Source of the DNA: Streptomyces katrae
Lineage (GTDB): Bacteria; Actinomycetota; Actinomycetes; Streptomycetales; Streptomycetaceae
Reading direction: 5' to 3'
Assembly: GCF_000966975.1 (NCBI RefSeq)
Contig: NZ_JZWV01000105.1
Location: 1 to 26,843, forward strand
DNA: 26,843 bases
The notes beneath the pieces were generated by a model, which was not told the DNA's origin, searched no databases, and saw only the letters and a program-made list of their open reading frames with translations. Shown here one piece after another: positions 8,926 to 26,054 of the stretch (positions are counted from its first letter, which is position 1; each line of letters starts with the position of its first letter). The position numbers and the translations under genes were made by a program.

Positions 8926-10471
8926 ATGCATCACATGAGTGGCGTGGATCACGGGAGCCGTCGGCACCGCCTGCTCGTCCTGGGCATCTGCTGCCTGAGC
9001 CTGCTGATCGTCAGCCTGGACAACACCGTCCTGAACGTGGCCCTGCCCGCGATGCGCCGCGAGTTCCACGCGTCGGTCTCGGGGATGCAGTGGACCATCG
9101 ACGCGTACACCCTGGTCATCGCCTCGCTGCTGATACTGGCCGGGTCCACGGGGGACCGGATCGGGCGGCGGAAGGTCTTCGCCTGGGGGCTGGTGCTGTT
9201 CACGGCGGGATCGGTGCTGTGCTCCCTGGCACCCGGGCTGCACTGGCTGATCGCCTTCCGGATGGTCCAGGCCGTCGGCGGGGCCATGCTCAACCCCGTC
9301 GCCATGTCGATCATCACCAACACGTTCACCGACCCGAAGGAGCGCGCCCGCGCCATCGGCGTCTGGGGGGCGGTGGTCGGCATCTCCATGGCCGCCGGAC
9401 CGCTGATCGGCGGGCTGCTGGTGGACTCGGTGGGCTGGCGGTCCATCTTCTGGGTCAACCTGCCGGTCGGACTCGTCGCCCTCGCGCTGACCCTGCGGTT
9501 CGTGCCGGAGTCCCGATCCGACCGGCCGCGCCGGCCGGACCCGGTGGGCCAGCTGCTGGTCGTGGTGCTGCTGGGCGGGGTGACGTACGCGATCATCGAG
9601 GCCCCGGCCGAGGGCTGGAACTCCCCGCCGATCCTGGCGTGCGCGCTGGGCGCGGCGGCCGCGCTGGGCGGGCTGCTGTTCTACGAGTCCCGGCGGACCG
9701 ACCCGCTGATCGACCCCCGGTTCTTCCGCAGCGCCCCGTTCAGCGGGGCCACCGTGATCGCCGTGAGCACCTTCGCCTCGCTCTCCGGGTTCCTCTTCCT
9801 GACCACCCTGTACCTCCAGGAGGTGCGGGGGCTGAACGCGCTGGACGCGGGGCTGCACATGCTGCCGATGGCCGCGATGGCCTTCCTGTGCGCGCCGGTC
9901 TCCGGGCGGCTGGTCGCCAGCCACGGGCCGCGGCCCTCGCTGCTGGTGTCGGGGGTGGCCATGGGGGCGAGCGGACTGCTGTTCGCGGCGTTCTCGGCGG
10001 AGACGTCCACTCCGCTGATGTTCACCGGGTACGTGCTCTTCGGCATCGGCTTCGGCCTGGTCAACGCCCCGATCACCAATACGGCGCTGTCGGGGATGCC
10101 CCGCTCCCAGGCGGGGGTGGCGGCCGCGGTGGCCTCCACCAGCCGGCAGAAGCCGGCAGACCGGCGGGGCGCTGGGCGTCGCGGTGATAGGGGCGGTGCT
10201 CGCGGCCGGGACCTCGGGCGGCGCGGACTTCGCGACGGCGACCCGGCCCGCCTGGTGGATCATCACCGGCTGCGCGCTCCTGGTCCTGGTCCTCGGGGCC
10301 GTCACCACCGGCCCGTGGGCGCACGCCACCGCGCTGCGGACGGCGCGGGCCCTGGAGCCTTCGCCGGCCGCCGCCCCCTCCGCCCCGCCCGCCTCCCCGC
10401 CGGGGCAGGCTCCCGGCCACCGGACGGACGGCGGGCTGCCCCCGGCTCCCGGGCCGGCGCCGGCGGGCTGA
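8926..10471 (+). pseudogene. MFS drug exporter (DHA2/EmrB-QacA type), frameshifted
   Basis: This encodes a 14-helix major facilitator of the drug:H+ antiporter-2 family. Visible motifs are SLDNTVLNVALPAM in helix 1, motif A GSTGDRIGRRK, and the antiporter motif C region VGISMAAGPLIGG. The reading frame is intact for 408 residues to 10149. A tandem 10-bp duplication (10141-10160) then shifts it by one base. Removing one copy restores ...TSRQTGGALGVAVIGAVLA... and a complete 511-residue protein ending at 10471, which shows that the two parts were one gene. As it stands, the last two helices (including WWIITGCALLVLVLGAV) are lost, and translation would run on in the wrong frame to 12129. The start ATG has a TACGAT box at 8912-8917, so a leaderless transcript is likely. 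It could be a recent pseudogene, a reversible variant, or an assembly error. Confidence 0.85.
10141..10160 (+). repeat. 10-bp tandem duplication causing the exporter frameshift
   Basis: AGCCGGCAGA occurs twice back to back (10141-10150 and 10151-10160). A 10-bp insertion is not a multiple of three and moves the exporter from one frame to the next. Confidence 0.95.
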
Positions 10472-10526: not shown

Positions 10527-10569
10527 ACGGCTGACAGATATTGAAATCTGTCAGCCGTCATGCCATTGT
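10527..10569 (+). promoter_or_regulatory. 32-bp palindromic operator over a leaderless promoter of the aldo/keto reductase
   Basis: The arms ACGGCTGACAGAT (10527-10539) and ATCTGTCAGCCGT (10546-10558) are perfect inverted repeats around ATTGAA. A -35-like TTGAAA (10541-10546) lies at its centre, and CATTGT (10564-10569) follows at 17 bp as a -10. That places the transcription start at or next to the ATG at 10577, where no Shine-Dalgarno sequence exists. The length and AT-rich core are typical of TetR-family operators, and a TetR gene follows the reductase. It might also act as a terminator for the exporter gene. Confidence 0.65.
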
Positions 10570-10576
10570 TGTTTCC

Positions 10577-11605
10577 ATGACGACGAACGAGAACACCTCC
10601 GCGCCCGCCACCATCCCCGCCGCACGCCGACTCGGCGCCACCGGCCCGTCGGTCTTCCCCCTGGGACTGGGCTGCATGGGCATGTCCGCCCTCTACGGCG
10701 AGGCCGACCGGAGCGAGTCCCTGGCGACGATCCACGCCTTCCTGGAGGCGGCCCCCGAGGGGATGAACACGCTCCTGGACACCGGCGACTTCTACGGCAT
10801 GGGCCACAACGAGCTGCTGATCAACGAGGCCCTGCGCACCGCCCCCACCGCCGCCCGCGAGCAGGCGCTGACCAGCGTCAAGTTCGGCGCCCTGCGCACC
10901 GTCGAGGGCGGGTTCACCGGGTACGACGGGCGGCCCGAGGCCGTGAAGAACTTCCTGGCCTACTCGCTCCAGCGGCTCGGCCGGGACCACATCGACATCT
11001 ACCGGATCGCCCGCGTCGACCCGGACGTCCCGATCGAGGAGACCGTCGGCGCCATCGCCGAGGCCGTGCAGGCGGGGCACGTCCGGCACATCGGCCTCTC
11101 CGAGGTCGGCGCGGACACCCTGCGCCGGGCCGCGGCGGTGGCCCCGATCTCGGACCTCCAGATCGAGTACTCGCTGATCTCGCGCGGCATCGAGGACCGG
11201 ATCCTGCCGACCGCCCGCGAGCTCGGCATAGGCGTGACGGCATACGGGGTGCTGTCCCGGGGGCTGATCATGTCCCGGGGGCTGATCAGCGGGCACTTCA
11301 GCCGGGACCGCGCCCTCGCCCCCGGGGACTTCCGCGGGATGAGCCCCCGCTTCCAGGGCGAGAACCTGGCCCGCAACCTCGACCTGGTCGAGGCCCTGCG
11401 CAAGGTCGCCGCCGAGCAGGGCGTGAGCGTCGCCCAGACCGCGATCGCCTGGGTGCTCGCCCAGGGGCCGCGCCACGGCGTCGACATACGGGTCGAGCTG
11501 AGCGAGGCCGACCTGGCCGCCATCGAGGCGGCGGTCCCGGCCGGGGCCGCCTCCGGCGACCGCTATCCGGCCGCGCAGATGGCCCACCTCGACAGCGAGC
11601 ACTGA
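10577..11605 (+). CDS. Aldo/keto reductase lacking the usual catalytic histidine
   Basis: A 342-residue TIM-barrel oxidoreductase of the aldo/keto reductase superfamily, probably NADPH dependent. It has the N-terminal LGLGCMGMSALYG and the catalytic residues Asp68 and Tyr73 (LLDTGDFYGMGHNE) and Lys102 (TSVKFG). The fourth tetrad position differs: where relatives read YYQHRVDP, this protein reads YRIARVDP, so alanine 145 stands at the place of the histidine. This is a recurrent variant in actinobacteria as far as I recall, so it may be a subfamily rather than a dead enzyme. The ATG at 10577 was chosen from the promoter geometry and the MTTNENTSAP start; an upstream frame from 10541 would run through the operator. 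It is probably induced through that operator. The substrate is unknown. Confidence 0.88.
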   Translation: MTTNENTSAPATIPAARRLGATGPSVFPLGLGCMGMSALYGEADRSESLATIHAFLEAAPEGMNTLLDTGDFYGMGHNELLINEALRTAPTAAREQALTSVKFGALRTVEGGFTGYDGRPEAVKNFLAYSLQRLGRDHIDIYRIARVDPDVPIEETVGAIAEAVQAGHVRHIGLSEVGADTLRRAAAVAPISDLQIEYSLISRGIEDRILPTARELGIGVTAYGVLSRGLIMSRGLISGHFSRDRALAPGDFRGMSPRFQGENLARNLDLVEALRKVAAEQGVSVAQTAIAWVLAQGPRHGVDIRVELSEADLAAIEAAVPAGAASGDRYPAAQMAHLDSEH

Positions 11606-11626: not shown

Positions 11627-12220
11627 ATGCCCTCCGCTGCTGCCGAGCCCCTGACCCCCGAGCGCATCCTCGAGACCACCGAGGAAGTGCTGCGCCGCTT
11701 CGGCCCCACCAAGGCGACCGTGGTGGATGTGGCGCGCGCCCTGGGCGTCAGCCACGGCAGCGTCTACCGGCACTTCCCCTCGAAGGCGGCGCTGCGCGAG
11801 GCCGTCACCGACCGCTGGCTCGCCAAGAGCGTGGTCATGCTGGAAGGGATCGCCTCGGCCCCGGGCGAGGCAGCCCCCTCCAAGCTGGAGTCCTGGCTGG
11901 AGGCCCTCTTCGAGGCCAAGCGCCACAAGGCGGGCGACGACCCGGAGCTGTTCGCGACCTACACGGTGCTGCTGGCCGAGAACAGCGGGGTGGTCGACAC
12001 CCACCTGACGGAGCTGATCGACCAGCTGACCCGGATCATCGCCGAGGGCGTCGCCGCCGGCACCCTGGCCGCGCCCGACGTGCCGGCCGCCGCGCGCGCC
12101 GTCTTCGACGCCACCGGCCGGTTCCATGACCCGCAGTACGTGGCGGAGTGGTTCTCCCCCACGATCACCACGGAGTTCGAGGCCGTCGTCGCGCTCGTCA
12201 TCAGGGGTCTTCGCGCCTGA
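11627..12220 (+). CDS. TetR-family transcriptional regulator
   Basis: A 197-residue one-component repressor. The N-terminal helix-turn-helix is clear: ILETTEEVLRRFGPTKATVVDVARALGVSHGSVYRHFPSKAALREAV (about residues 14-60). The C-terminal helices form the ligand and dimer domain (FDATGRFHDPQYVAEW and surrounding helices). It follows the aldo/keto reductase by 21 bases on the same strand, and a 32-bp TetR-like operator stands before the reductase, so the natural inference is that it represses the reductase. The inducer is unknown. No Shine-Dalgarno sequence is seen; the start sits just after a -10-like box. Confidence 0.93.
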   Translation: MPSAAAEPLTPERILETTEEVLRRFGPTKATVVDVARALGVSHGSVYRHFPSKAALREAVTDRWLAKSVVMLEGIASAPGEAAPSKLESWLEALFEAKRHKAGDDPELFATYTVLLAENSGVVDTHLTELIDQLTRIIAEGVAAGTLAAPDVPAAARAVFDATGRFHDPQYVAEWFSPTITTEFEAVVALVIRGLRA

Positions 12221-19629: not shown

Positions 19630-21342
19630 TCAGACGGCGGGCGCTCCCGCCTCGTCGGCCTCCTCGGCCGCGGCCTCAGCCGCGCCGTCCTTCACGGAGC
19701 CGTCCTTGGCGGAGCCGTCCTTGGCGGAGCCGTCCTTGGCGGAGCCGTCCTTGGCGGAGCCGTCCTTGGCGGCACTGTCCTTGGCGGCACTGTCCTTCGC
19801 CGCGCCGTCCTCCGCCGCGCCGTCCTTCACCGTGTCCGCCTTCGCCGTGTCCGCCTTCGCGGAGCCGGCCTTCTCGGCGGCCGCGGGGGCGGTCGTCGGC
19901 TGGGCGGGCAGCTCGGCGTGCCCGGTCAGGTTCTCGGCCAGCGTCTCGGCCAGGGCCTCGGCCGCGGGGACGTTCTGCGCGTCGTCCTTGGCCAGGCCGT
20001 TGAAGACCAGGTTCAGGATGATGGCGGCGCTGGCACCGAGGGTCACACCGCTGTTGAGGAGCGAGGACAGGTCCGCGCCCATGTGCTTGTCGAAGTAGGC
20101 CGGAACCGTGGCGGGGAAGAGCGCGAAGGCCAGCGAGACGCCGACGATCAGGGCGTTCTTCTCCTCCTTGAGGTCCACCTTGGCCAGGGTCTGGATGCCG
20201 GCGAGGGCGACCATGCCGAACATCACGGTGGCGGCGCCGCCGAGGACGCCCGGCGGGACGGAGGCGACGATCGCGGCGGCCTTGGGGAGCAGACCGAGCA
20301 CGATCATGATGGCGCCGGCCGCCACGACCACGAAGCGGCTCTTGACCTTGGTCATCCGCACCAGGCCGACGTTCTCGGCGAAGGCGACGTACGGGAAGGA
20401 GTTGAGGATGCCGCCGAGGGCGGTGGCGGCGCCGTCGGCGCGCAGGGCGCGGGCGACGGTCTCGCTGTCGACCTCCTTGCCGACGATGTCTCCGACGGCG
20501 TAGGTGTCACCGGTCGTCTCGACCATGGTGATCAGCATGACGATCAGCATGAGGAGGATCGGGAACCATTCGAACTTCGGGGCGCCGAAGTGGAAGGGGG
20601 TGGTGACGCCGATCCAGTCGGACTTGCCGACGTCGCCGAACTCGGCGTCGCCGAGCAGGAAGGCGGCGGCCGTGCCGCCGACCAGGCCGAGCAGGATGGC
20701 GATGCTGCGCAGGAAGGGTCCGCCGAACTTCATCAGGACGAGGATGAAGAGCATCGTGCCGCCGGCGTAGGCCAGCTGCGTCGGGACTCCGCCGTCGGCG
20801 ATGGTGGGGGCGCCGCCGGCCGCGTCCTTGAGGCCGACCGGGACCAGGACGATGCCGAGGACCGTGATGACGGTGCCGGTGACGACCGGCGGGAAGAGCC
20901 TCATGACCGCGCGGAAGGCCTTGGGGGGCAGCCAGGCGAAGGCGAAGGTCGCGAGACCGGCCGTGATGACGGCGCCGTAGATGACCAGCAGGGCGGCCGC
21001 TCCGCCGCCGGCGCCGAGGCCGATGGCGATCATCGGGGAGACCGCGGTGAAGGTCACGCCCTGGATCAGCGGGAGCCGGGCGCCGACGCGGCCGACGCCG
21101 AAGGCCTGGATGATCGAGGCGATACCGCAGGTGAAGAGGTCCGCGTTGATCAGGTAGACCAGCTGTTCAGGGCTCAGCTTCAGCGCACTGCCGACGATGA
21201 TCGGGACGATCACCGCGCCGGCGTAGAAGGCGAGTACGTGCTGGAAGCCGTACAGCGCGAGCTTGGGGAGGGGGAGCACCTCGTCGACCGGGTGCGAGCT
21301 CTGCTCTCCGCTTGCGGAAAGCCGGGCGGCGACACGTGCCAT
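19630..21342 (-). CDS. NCS2 family nucleobase (uracil/xanthine) permease with repetitive C-terminal tail
   Basis: A proton- or sodium-coupled purine/pyrimidine transporter of the nucleobase:cation symporter-2 family in the cytoplasmic membrane. Residues 1 to about 455 form the 14-helix transport core, with the family motifs GFQHVLAFYAGAVIVP (Q34-H35), VETTGDTYAVGD (E275) and AENVGLVRMTKVKSR (E323-N324) in the substrate-site signature. The substrate is not certain; xanthine, uric acid or uracil are the family choices. The last 115 residues are outside the family: an Ala/Lys/Asp-rich tail, with residues 491-555 built from 13 five-residue units such as AKDGS. This tail is hydrophilic and probably disordered in the cytoplasm. 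The ATG at 21342 follows AAGGCAGAG; a TTG at 21360 is less likely. The gene is monocistronic. Confidence 0.92.
   Translation of the reverse strand: MARVAARLSASGEQSSHPVDEVLPLPKLALYGFQHVLAFYAGAVIVPIIVGSALKLSPEQLVYLINADLFTCGIASIIQAFGVGRVGARLPLIQGVTFTAVSPMIAIGLGAGGGAAALLVIYGAVITAGLATFAFAWLPPKAFRAVMRLFPPVVTGTVITVLGIVLVPVGLKDAAGGAPTIADGGVPTQLAYAGGTMLFILVLMKFGGPFLRSIAILLGLVGGTAAAFLLGDAEFGDVGKSDWIGVTTPFHFGAPKFEWFPILLMLIVMLITMVETTGDTYAVGDIVGKEVDSETVARALRADGAATALGGILNSFPYVAFAENVGLVRMTKVKSRFVVVAAGAIMIVLGLLPKAAAIVASVPPGVLGGAATVMFGMVALAGIQTLAKVDLKEEKNALIVGVSLAFALFPATVPAYFDKHMGADLSSLLNSGVTLGASAAIILNLVFNGLAKDDAQNVPAAEALAETLAENLTGHAELPAQPTTAPAAAEKAGSAKADTAKADTVKDGAAEDGAAKDSAAKDSAAKDGSAKDGSAKDGSAKDGSAKDGSVKDGAAEAAAEEADEAGAPAV
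19681..19875 (-). repeat. Thirteen tandem 15-bp repeats in the permease tail
   Basis: The unit GGAGCCGTCCTTGGC (plus strand) occurs five times without change at 19696-19770. It is flanked by one and seven diverged 15-bp units. The unit length is a multiple of three, so copy-number change would keep the frame and alter only the length of the tail. Confidence 0.93.
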
Positions 21343-24952: not shown

Positions 24953-26032
24953 ATGGATGCCTTCCTTCCCCACGGACACGCCCCCCACCACCCCGTCTTC
25001 TGCACCGTGGTGCCGCCGCACCTGCTGGACAAGGCCGCCCGGTCCGCCGACACCGCCCGTGCCGACGCCGCGCAGCGCACCCTGGAGACCGACGCCCTCC
25101 TGCGCACCCGGCGCCGGATCAGCACCGTCCGGGGGATCGTCCCGGCCGAGGCCGACGCCTCCGCCCCCGAGGGGCCGCGGCGCACGATCTACGACGCCCA
25201 GCACCACACCCGGCTGCCCGGGAAGAAGGTCCGCGCGGAGGGCGCCGACGCCGCCAAGGACGCCACCGTGAACCGCGCGTACGCCGGCCTCGGGGCCACG
25301 TACGAACTCTTCCTCAAGGGCTACGGCCGCCGCTCGATCGACGGCTCCGGCCTGCCGCTGGACGCGAGCGTGCACTACGGCGAGGACTACAACAACGCCT
25401 TTTGGGACGGGCAGCAGATGGTCTTCGGCGACGGGGACGGGGACCTGTTCCTGGACTTCACCGTCTCGGTGGACGTCATCGGGCACGAGCTGACCCACGG
25501 CGTCACCCAGTACACCGCCAACCTCGACTATCACGGCCAGTCCGGCGCCCTCAACGAGTCCATGTCGGACGTCTTCGGCTCGCTGATCAAGCAGTACTCG
25601 CTCGGCCAGACCGCCGACCAGGCGGACTGGCTGATCGGAGCCGGGCTGCTCGGCCCCAACGTCACCGGGGTCGCGCTGCGCTCGATGAAGGCGCCGGGGA
25701 CCGCGTACGACGACGACGAGCTCGGCAAGGACCCGCAGCCGGCGACGATGGACGGCTACGTGACCACCTCGCGCGACAACGGGGGCGTCCACATCAACTC
25801 CGGCATCCCCAATCACGCCTTCTACATCGTGGCGACCGAACTGGGCGGCAAGGCCTGGGAGCGGGCCGGACAGATCTGGTACGACACCCTGACCGGCGGG
25901 CAGCTGGAGTCCCGGGCGGACTTCAGGGACTTCGCCCGGCTGTCGGTCGCGGCGGCCGTCGCCCGGTACGGGGAGGGCGGCGCCGAGCACCAGGCGCTCC
26001 AGAAGGCCTGGGCGGCCGTCGGCCTGGCGTAG
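24953..26032 (+). CDS. Protealysin-like M4 family metalloprotease
   Basis: A zinc endopeptidase of the thermolysin family. The 359-residue protein has the zinc motif H178-E-L-T-H182 in VDVIGHELTHGVTQYTA, the third ligand E202 (GALNESMSDVFG) exactly 20 residues after H182 as in thermolysin, and the catalytic-site histidine H280 in DNGGVHINSGIPNHAFY. There is no signal peptide and no long FTP/PepSY propeptide. Instead the N-terminus has a short protealysin-type propeptide (about residues 1-75) with the VFCTVVPPHLL motif, so the enzyme is probably made and kept inside the cell in latent form. The ATG at 24953 was chosen since extension to 24884 has no support. The gene is followed after 22 bases by the emfourin gene, a likely operon. 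It is divergent from leuA. Confidence 0.93.
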   Translation: MDAFLPHGHAPHHPVFCTVVPPHLLDKAARSADTARADAAQRTLETDALLRTRRRISTVRGIVPAEADASAPEGPRRTIYDAQHHTRLPGKKVRAEGADAAKDATVNRAYAGLGATYELFLKGYGRRSIDGSGLPLDASVHYGEDYNNAFWDGQQMVFGDGDGDLFLDFTVSVDVIGHELTHGVTQYTANLDYHGQSGALNESMSDVFGSLIKQYSLGQTADQADWLIGAGLLGPNVTGVALRSMKAPGTAYDDDELGKDPQPATMDGYVTTSRDNGGVHINSGIPNHAFYIVATELGGKAWERAGQIWYDTLTGGQLESRADFRDFARLSVAAAVARYGEGGAEHQALQKAWAAVGLA

Positions 26033-26054
26033 GAATGCGGGTAGGAATGCCGGC

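What the first reader, a model, noticed from the sequence alone, without database searches (positions are those of the whole stretch)
10141..10160. A 10-bp tandem duplication breaks a drug-exporter gene
AGCCGGCAGA is present twice in a row. Deleting one copy restores a 511-residue DHA2 exporter whose C-terminal third is otherwise coded in a different frame. The downstream segment has kept its coding sense (helix 14 intact), so the event is recent, reversible, or an artefact. Slippage or recombination between copies could restore the gene, giving an on/off switch.
Basis: partly seen in the sequence, partly recalled or inferred. Interest (0 to 1): 0.75.

Follow-up and report, generated by a model that had tools for sequence, protein, structure and literature searches.

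The report
Private 10-base repeat breaks exporter gene
In this draft Streptomyces genome a 10-base stretch occurs twice in a row and throws a drug-exporter-type gene out of frame; the relatives examined have one copy and an intact gene, so this is most likely an ordinary recent gene break or an assembly mistake, with no evidence of a switch.

Summary
Observation confirmed: AGCCGGCAGA lies twice head to tail at 10141-10160. The first 405 codons (8926-10140) of a DHA2/EmrB-type MFS exporter gene are in one frame, its last part (10163-10471) in another. The sister genome G386 (95% DNA identity over the gene) has one copy in near-identical flanks and an open 510-codon gene. Of 114 orthologue loci inspected none has this tandem; 113 have both parts in one frame, 1 gave no match for the C part. 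A pattern scan of 392 Streptomyces genomes found it at this site only here. The downstream part still looks like a constrained transporter end, so the change is recent or not real. The neighbouring aldo/keto-reductase gene carries two more private changes. The assembly has 1873 contigs and more candidate frame breaks than the relatives sampled, though a second sample of contigs did not show this significantly; an assembly error remains a serious rival and no reads were available. A reversible switch has no support. Verdict: ordinary private loss of function (about 0.55) or artefact (about 0.38).

The parts
8926..10140 (+). 5' part of the DHA2/EmrB-type MFS exporter gene, 405 codons in frame
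   Evidence: TIGR00711 274.4 bits (cut-off 230.2) and MFS_1 for window:8929-10185; start codon as in relatives; 97.5% aa identity to G386
10141..10150 (+). first copy of AGCCGGCAGA
   Evidence: G386 has one copy only
10151..10160 (+). second copy of AGCCGGCAGA
   Evidence: 77 of 80 bases from here on identical to G386
10163..10471 (+). 3' part of the exporter gene (last two hydrophobic segments and tail, stop included), coded in another frame than the 5' part
   Evidence: 90% aa identity to G386 with one single-codon gap, no stop inside; HMM frame change at 10156/10157; last two hydrophobic segments of the intact relative P0001 lie beyond residue 405
10577..11605 (+). aldo/keto reductase gene with two further changes private to this genome
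   Evidence: PF00248; 18-base tandem duplication and 57-base in-frame deletion against G386; 0 of 40 and 0 of 36 loci of relatives covering the places have them
11253..11288 (+). perfect 18-base tandem duplication TGTCCCGGGGGCTGATCA in the aldo/keto reductase gene
   Evidence: (D8); one copy in G386
11485..11509 (+). place (approximate) of the 57-base deletion in the aldo/keto reductase gene: 19 residues, among them a stretch kept with small changes in all 36 loci covering it
10527..10558 (.). perfect inverted repeat (13-base arms) between exporter and reductase; probable operator of the reductase/TetR unit (inference), which suggests separate transcription units
   Evidence: core TGACAGATATTGAAATCTGTCA found before the reductase gene in 7 of 15 relatives examined, G386 included
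11627..12220 (+). intact TetR-family regulator gene
   Evidence: TetR_N and TetR_C_27; dN/dS 0.09 against G386

Best explanation
A recent 10-base tandem duplication, private to this strain or its close kin, has shifted the reading frame of a DHA2-type exporter gene after codon 405. The predicted product lacks the last two hydrophobic segments and runs on for some 660 out-of-frame residues, so it is most likely dead: a fresh pseudogene. Shown: the insertion, the frame change, the intact relatives, the retained coding sense downstream. Inferred: that it exists in the living strain, that it arose by slippage at a small GC-rich hairpin (GCCGG-CAGA-CCGGC in the one-copy form), and that the product is inactive.
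For: G386 (95% DNA identity over the gene, 3 contigs) is collinear with the window over 26840 bases and differs inside this gene by this 10-base insertion and one 3-base indel. Of 23 G386 coding segments aligned to the window, only this one is frame-broken. 0 of 114 orthologue loci carry the tandem and 113 have both parts in one frame. The downstream core is still transporter-like: dN/dS 0.18 over 61 codons (7 synonymous, 3 other changes) against 0.12 for the upstream part; 1 of 61 residues is specific to this genome against G386, P0001 and P0002. The neighbouring reductase has two further private changes, one removing a stretch kept in 36 of 36 loci, which would fit relaxed selection on this stretch. 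Matched genes show no flood of frame breaks: 2 further events in G000 against 1 in G386 over 39364 aligned residues, overlaps included.
Against: No reads were available. The assembly is a 1873-contig draft, and the HMM scan gives 19 frame-jump candidates in 512 kb of coding sequence (16 in 365 kb, then 3 in 147 kb) against 9 in 1041 kb of relatives, so an error is quite possible. The reductase is not pseudogene-like over longer time (dN/dS 0.17). The one-copy hairpin is not more stable than shuffled sequence (z -0.12). The two copies share no extra terminal homology, which classical slippage usually uses (recalled).
Confidence: 0.55

Rival explanations
1. Assembly or library artefact: the strain has one copy and an intact exporter; the second copy was added when a low-coverage, GC-rich stretch was assembled, for example at a badly merged overlap.
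For: 1873 contigs for 8.05 Mb. Excess of HMM frame-jump candidates in the first set of contigs (16 in 365 kb against 9 in 1041 kb of relatives, p 7e-5). Tandem duplications of at least 10 bases and not a multiple of three: 3 of 7 coding cases in that set lie at a frame jump (the finding included), 0 of 4 in the relatives. Three private indels crowd in 1.4 kb. Cooley and Wright report that many putative pseudogenes in public genomes are assembly errors, with assembler, platform and coverage as likely causes; for frameshifts only coverage was a possible cause, with low confidence (PMC11017572, abstract and passages).
Against: Neither excess was significant in the 40 further contigs (3 frame jumps in 147 kb, p 0.18; 1 coding tandem case, p 0.48, none at a frame jump). 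In matched genes the draft has 2 broken genes besides the finding, against 1 in G386. The two private changes in the reductase keep its frame (18 and 57 bases), which random error would not favour. The rest of the window aligns as one piece.
Confidence: 0.38
2. Reversible on/off switch: loss and gain of one copy turns the exporter on and off in the population.
For: Two perfect adjacent copies, a frame-changing 10-base unit, downstream coding sense intact.
Against: 0 of 114 orthologue loci carry the tandem and only the own genome of 392 scanned has it at this site, so the tract is not a kept feature. Two copies are a poor substrate compared with the long tracts of known phase-variable genes (recalled). 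In Xenorhabdus lrp, tandem duplications of 26-116 bp were among the inactivating mutations, and none of the phenotypic reversions seen in eight tested isolates was a genetic reversion; the passages do not say whether a duplication mutant was among the eight (PMC6786866, passages).
Confidence: 0.05
3. The gene still works although split: ribosomes change frame at the duplication, or the last two helices are made separately from the GTG at 10184.
For: Downstream part conserved and open, with a GTG at 10184.
Against: The relatives inspected need neither device (113 of 114 loci in one frame); no slippery site or clear ribosome-binding site was seen by eye at 10140-10190 (no test); starting at 10184 would lose part of the next-to-last helix.
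Confidence: 0.02

Closest known systems
DHA2 (EmrB/QacA-type) MFS exporters, TIGR00711
   Same: The first part passes the family's curated cut-off; intact relatives of 510-513 residues.
   Different: In this genome the last part is in another frame, so no complete exporter is coded.
Frameshift pseudogenes, true or made by assembly (PMC11017572)
   Same: Single frame-breaking indel, orthologues intact, draft genome.
   Different: The indel is a 10-base tandem duplication; no reads to decide.
Loss of function by short tandem duplication (Xenorhabdus lrp, PMC6786866)
   Same: A head-to-tail copy of a short piece of the gene inactivates it.
   Different: There 26-116 bp, found in variant isolates of that study; here 10 bp, found in a deposited genome.
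Reversible frameshift silencing (M. tuberculosis, ScarTrek, PMC8339072)
   Same: Frame-breaking indel that a second change could undo.
   Different: No scar, second allele or reversal was seen here; the words tandem and duplication do not occur in that paper's main text.

Membership tests
DHA2/EmrB MFS exporter | scores above the TIGR00711 cut-off | tested here: met
   274.4 bits against 230.2 for window:8929-10185, profile positions 2-394 of 485
DHA2/EmrB MFS exporter | fourteen membrane helices in one chain | tested here: inconclusive
   simple hydropathy on the intact relative P0001 gave 20 overlapping segments, not a clean count; in the window the last part is in another frame
phase-variable (contingency) gene | unstable repeat tract kept or varying among relatives | tested here: not met
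   0 of 114 loci with this tandem (one, L036, has an unrelated 7-base repeat nearby); at this site only the own genome of 392 scanned for near-identical forms
phase-variable (contingency) gene | mixed population or measured switching | not testable with these tools
   no reads, no cultures
pseudogene | frame-breaking change against intact orthologues | tested here: met
pseudogene | change present in the organism, not only in the assembly | not testable with these tools
   no reads held
pseudogene | relaxed constraint downstream of the break | tested here: not met
   1 of 61 residues specific to this genome in the downstream core, no stop; the break is therefore recent if real

The most novel reading that the evidence does not exclude
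This lineage forms short (10-18 base) tandem duplications in GC-rich coding sequence unusually often, and the exporter is one of several genes that are silenced this way and could be regained by loss of one copy: a genome-wide, low-rate, reversible silencing.
Probability: 0.04. Interest if true: 0.6.

Novelty: new member of a known kind. Interest (0 to 1): 0.17.

Why it matters
It warns that an exporter gene annotated from this draft may be missing or chimeric (the open frame runs on to 12129), and that the next gene is altered as well. If the duplication is real, the strain is a natural loss-of-function variant, useful for asking what this widespread Streptomyces exporter does. If it is an error, it is one more false pseudogene.

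Tried and rejected
Chance repeat: rejected, because the repeat coincides with the frame change and is an insertion against the relatives inspected, although a unit-10 tandem alone would occur 0.16 times per window by chance.

Genome-wide excess of tandem duplications as proof of artefact: first set of G000 contigs 7 coding cases (unit at least 10, not a multiple of three) in 365 kb against 4 in 1041 kb of relatives (p 0.009), 3 against 0 at frame jumps (p 0.018; the finding itself is included in both); the 40 further contigs did not repeat it (1 case, p 0.48, 0 at frame jumps). Suggestive only. The relatives' set is not matched: 80 of its loci are the same chromosomal place, and some G386 loci overlap. 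Over all unit lengths from 7 the density of tandems was not raised in G000 (295 per Mb in other contigs, 437 in named relatives).

Second example: L136, 14-base tandem at 10572-10601 at an HMM frame jump; the upstream piece matches a ketoacyl-synthase domain (5.2e-06), the downstream piece matched no family, so the break there is likely but not proven. L184 16-base case: HMM only.

Transposon footprint (10-base target duplication): considered, not tested.

Count of broken exporters across the genus with an intact relative as query: failed twice, so not known. The genomes with a match (266 of 392) were not inspected one by one; only the loci counted were, and the pattern scan would miss forms with more than two differences.

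Errors of mine, set aside: one search used penalties that missed the finding itself; rows for the two ABC genes and the M4 protease were read in a wrong frame and are not used; the second stretch (L178:1201-1260) is not the site, replaced; one search was off by one residue for the first part, replaced; one search held a meaningless third row; one search skipped the loci lying on the other strand, replaced.

Literature: from the listings (titles and starts of abstracts) nothing evident on a switch by short tandem duplication in Streptomyces or on this exporter; listings on assembly-made frameshifts gave PMC11017572.

Full report
What is there. The window is one whole contig (C308, 26843 bases) of an unnamed draft genome, 8.05 Mb in 1873 contigs, 99.94% complete. 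At 10141-10160 AGCCGGCAGA stands twice head to tail, perfect, with no further match between the copies. Upstream, 8926-10140 codes the first 405 residues of a DHA2/EmrB-type MFS exporter (TIGR00711, 274.4 bits against a cut-off of 230.2 for 8929-10185). Downstream, 10163-10471 codes the end of the transporter in another frame; the last two hydrophobic segments of the intact relative P0001 lie there. As written, the upstream frame runs on to a stop ending at 12129. A three-periodic coding model trained on this and two related genomes changes frame at 10156/10157, inside the repeat.

Relatives. A protein search found intact relatives of 513 residues (P0001, 96% identity, Streptomyces sp. NPDC001594, 8 member sequences) and 511 residues (P0002, 94%, NPDC000075, 53 member sequences). 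Among 392 genomes of the genus searched with the gene's DNA, G386 is closest at 95%. G386 is collinear with the window over 26840 bases at 94%. At the site it has one copy: 57 of 60 bases before and 77 of 80 bases from the second copy on are identical, and its gene is open for 510 codons. Of 114 orthologue loci (29 and 5 from whole-genome searches, 80 named; some may be the same species), 113 have both parts in one frame, 1 (L036) gave no match for the C part, and none has this tandem; L036 has an unrelated 7-base repeat nearby. The exact pattern with up to two mismatches was found in 2 of 392 genomes, the own one and a place in G400 without the exporter. Not all 266 genomes that matched were inspected at the site.

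How old. Against G386 the upstream part has dN/dS 0.12 over 404 codons, the downstream core 0.18 over 61 codons, the whole downstream part 0.23 over 101 codons; correctly framed other genes of the window range from 0.02 to 0.37. Compared with G386, P0001 and P0002 together, this genome has 4 private residues in 405 upstream and 1 in 61 downstream, a V to L. There is no stop inside the downstream part. So the break, if real, is young.

The neighbour. The next gene, an aldo/keto reductase (PF00248), carries a perfect 18-base tandem duplication (11253-11288) and a 57-base deletion, both in frame and both absent from G386. None of 40 loci that cover the first place and none of 36 that cover the second share them (G062 is in both counts twice). 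The deleted stretch holds a motif kept with small changes in all 36. A further 33-base in-frame difference lies near the start of the gene; its direction is not known. Between exporter and reductase lies a perfect inverted repeat, 10527-10558; its core TGACAGATATTGAAATCTGTCA is also found upstream of the reductase gene in 7 of 15 relatives examined, G386 included. I infer a TetR operator and hence separate transcription units. The TetR gene itself is intact (dN/dS 0.09).

Real or artefact. Two tests. First, G386 coding segments against G000 DNA in the window and five stretches of 19-20 kb: 39364 aligned residues (loci overlap), 3 distinct frame breaks in G000 (this one; a 7-base deletion in L119; one near a gene start in L133) and 1 in G386. 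This is no strong sign of a bad assembly. Second, the coding model over more sequence without alignment: 16 candidate breaks in 365 kb coding in the first set of G000 contigs (p 7e-5) and 3 in 147 kb in 40 further contigs (p 0.18), against 9 in 1041 kb of relatives; this suggests more breaks in the draft, but the relatives' set is not matched and the candidates are unverified. Coding tandem duplications of at least 10 bases and not a multiple of three: 7 against 4, with 3 against 0 at a frame jump, in the first set; 1 and 0 in the further set. Cooley and Wright report that many putative pseudogenes in public genomes come from assembly and that high coverage is needed to avoid them (PMC11017572, abstract and passages). 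Without reads I cannot decide, and put 0.55 on a real private lesion and 0.38 on an artefact.

How it may have arisen. The one-copy form can fold as a small hairpin (stem GCCGG/CCGGC, loop CAGA), which is not exceptional among shuffled sequences (z -0.12). With two copies the fold is stronger (z -2.08). Polymerases can slip at hairpins flanked by direct repeats (PMC4134008, passages; the product described there is a deletion). Slippage is therefore a reasonable guess, no more.

The switch idea. It needs a tract that changes often. Here there are two copies in one genome and one copy in the relatives inspected. Precise loss of a copy is possible for any tandem duplication, but in the one comparable study read in passages, lrp of Xenorhabdus with tandem duplications of 26-116 bp among its mutations, none of the phenotypic reversions seen in eight tested isolates was a genetic one; whether a duplication mutant was among the eight is not said there (PMC6786866). 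I rate a switch at 0.05.

Conclusion. It is an ordinary finding.

Noticed in passing
window 11253-11288 and about 11485-11509: Aldo/keto reductase gene with a private perfect 18-base tandem duplication and a private 57-base in-frame deletion of a conserved stretch.
   Followed up: yes
window 10532-10553: Palindrome TGACAGATATTGAAATCTGTCA before the reductase/TetR unit, with the same core in 7 of 15 relatives examined: a likely conserved TetR operator.
   Followed up: partly
window 26027-26038: 12-base insertion against G386 at the end of a protease-like gene (name by eye) that nearly repeats the next 12 bases and lies over the stop codon.
   Followed up: no
window 19695-19860: 15-base tandem repeats in the C-terminal tail of a permease-like gene (name by eye), very different from G386.
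   Followed up: no
L136:10572-10601: 14-base tandem duplication at an HMM frame jump in a ketoacyl-synthase-like gene of the same genome; the contig has no close match in G386 (best 68-88% over short pieces).
   Followed up: partly
L184:8542-8576: 16-base tandem duplication at an HMM frame jump in the same genome.
   Followed up: no
L119:1-2165: 2165 bases given as 100% identical to G386 while the surroundings are 95-97% identical; conserved RNA genes or recent exchange, not examined.
   Followed up: no
P0040: 634-residue MFS relative in which a segment of roughly 150 residues seems, by eye, to be present twice.
   Followed up: no
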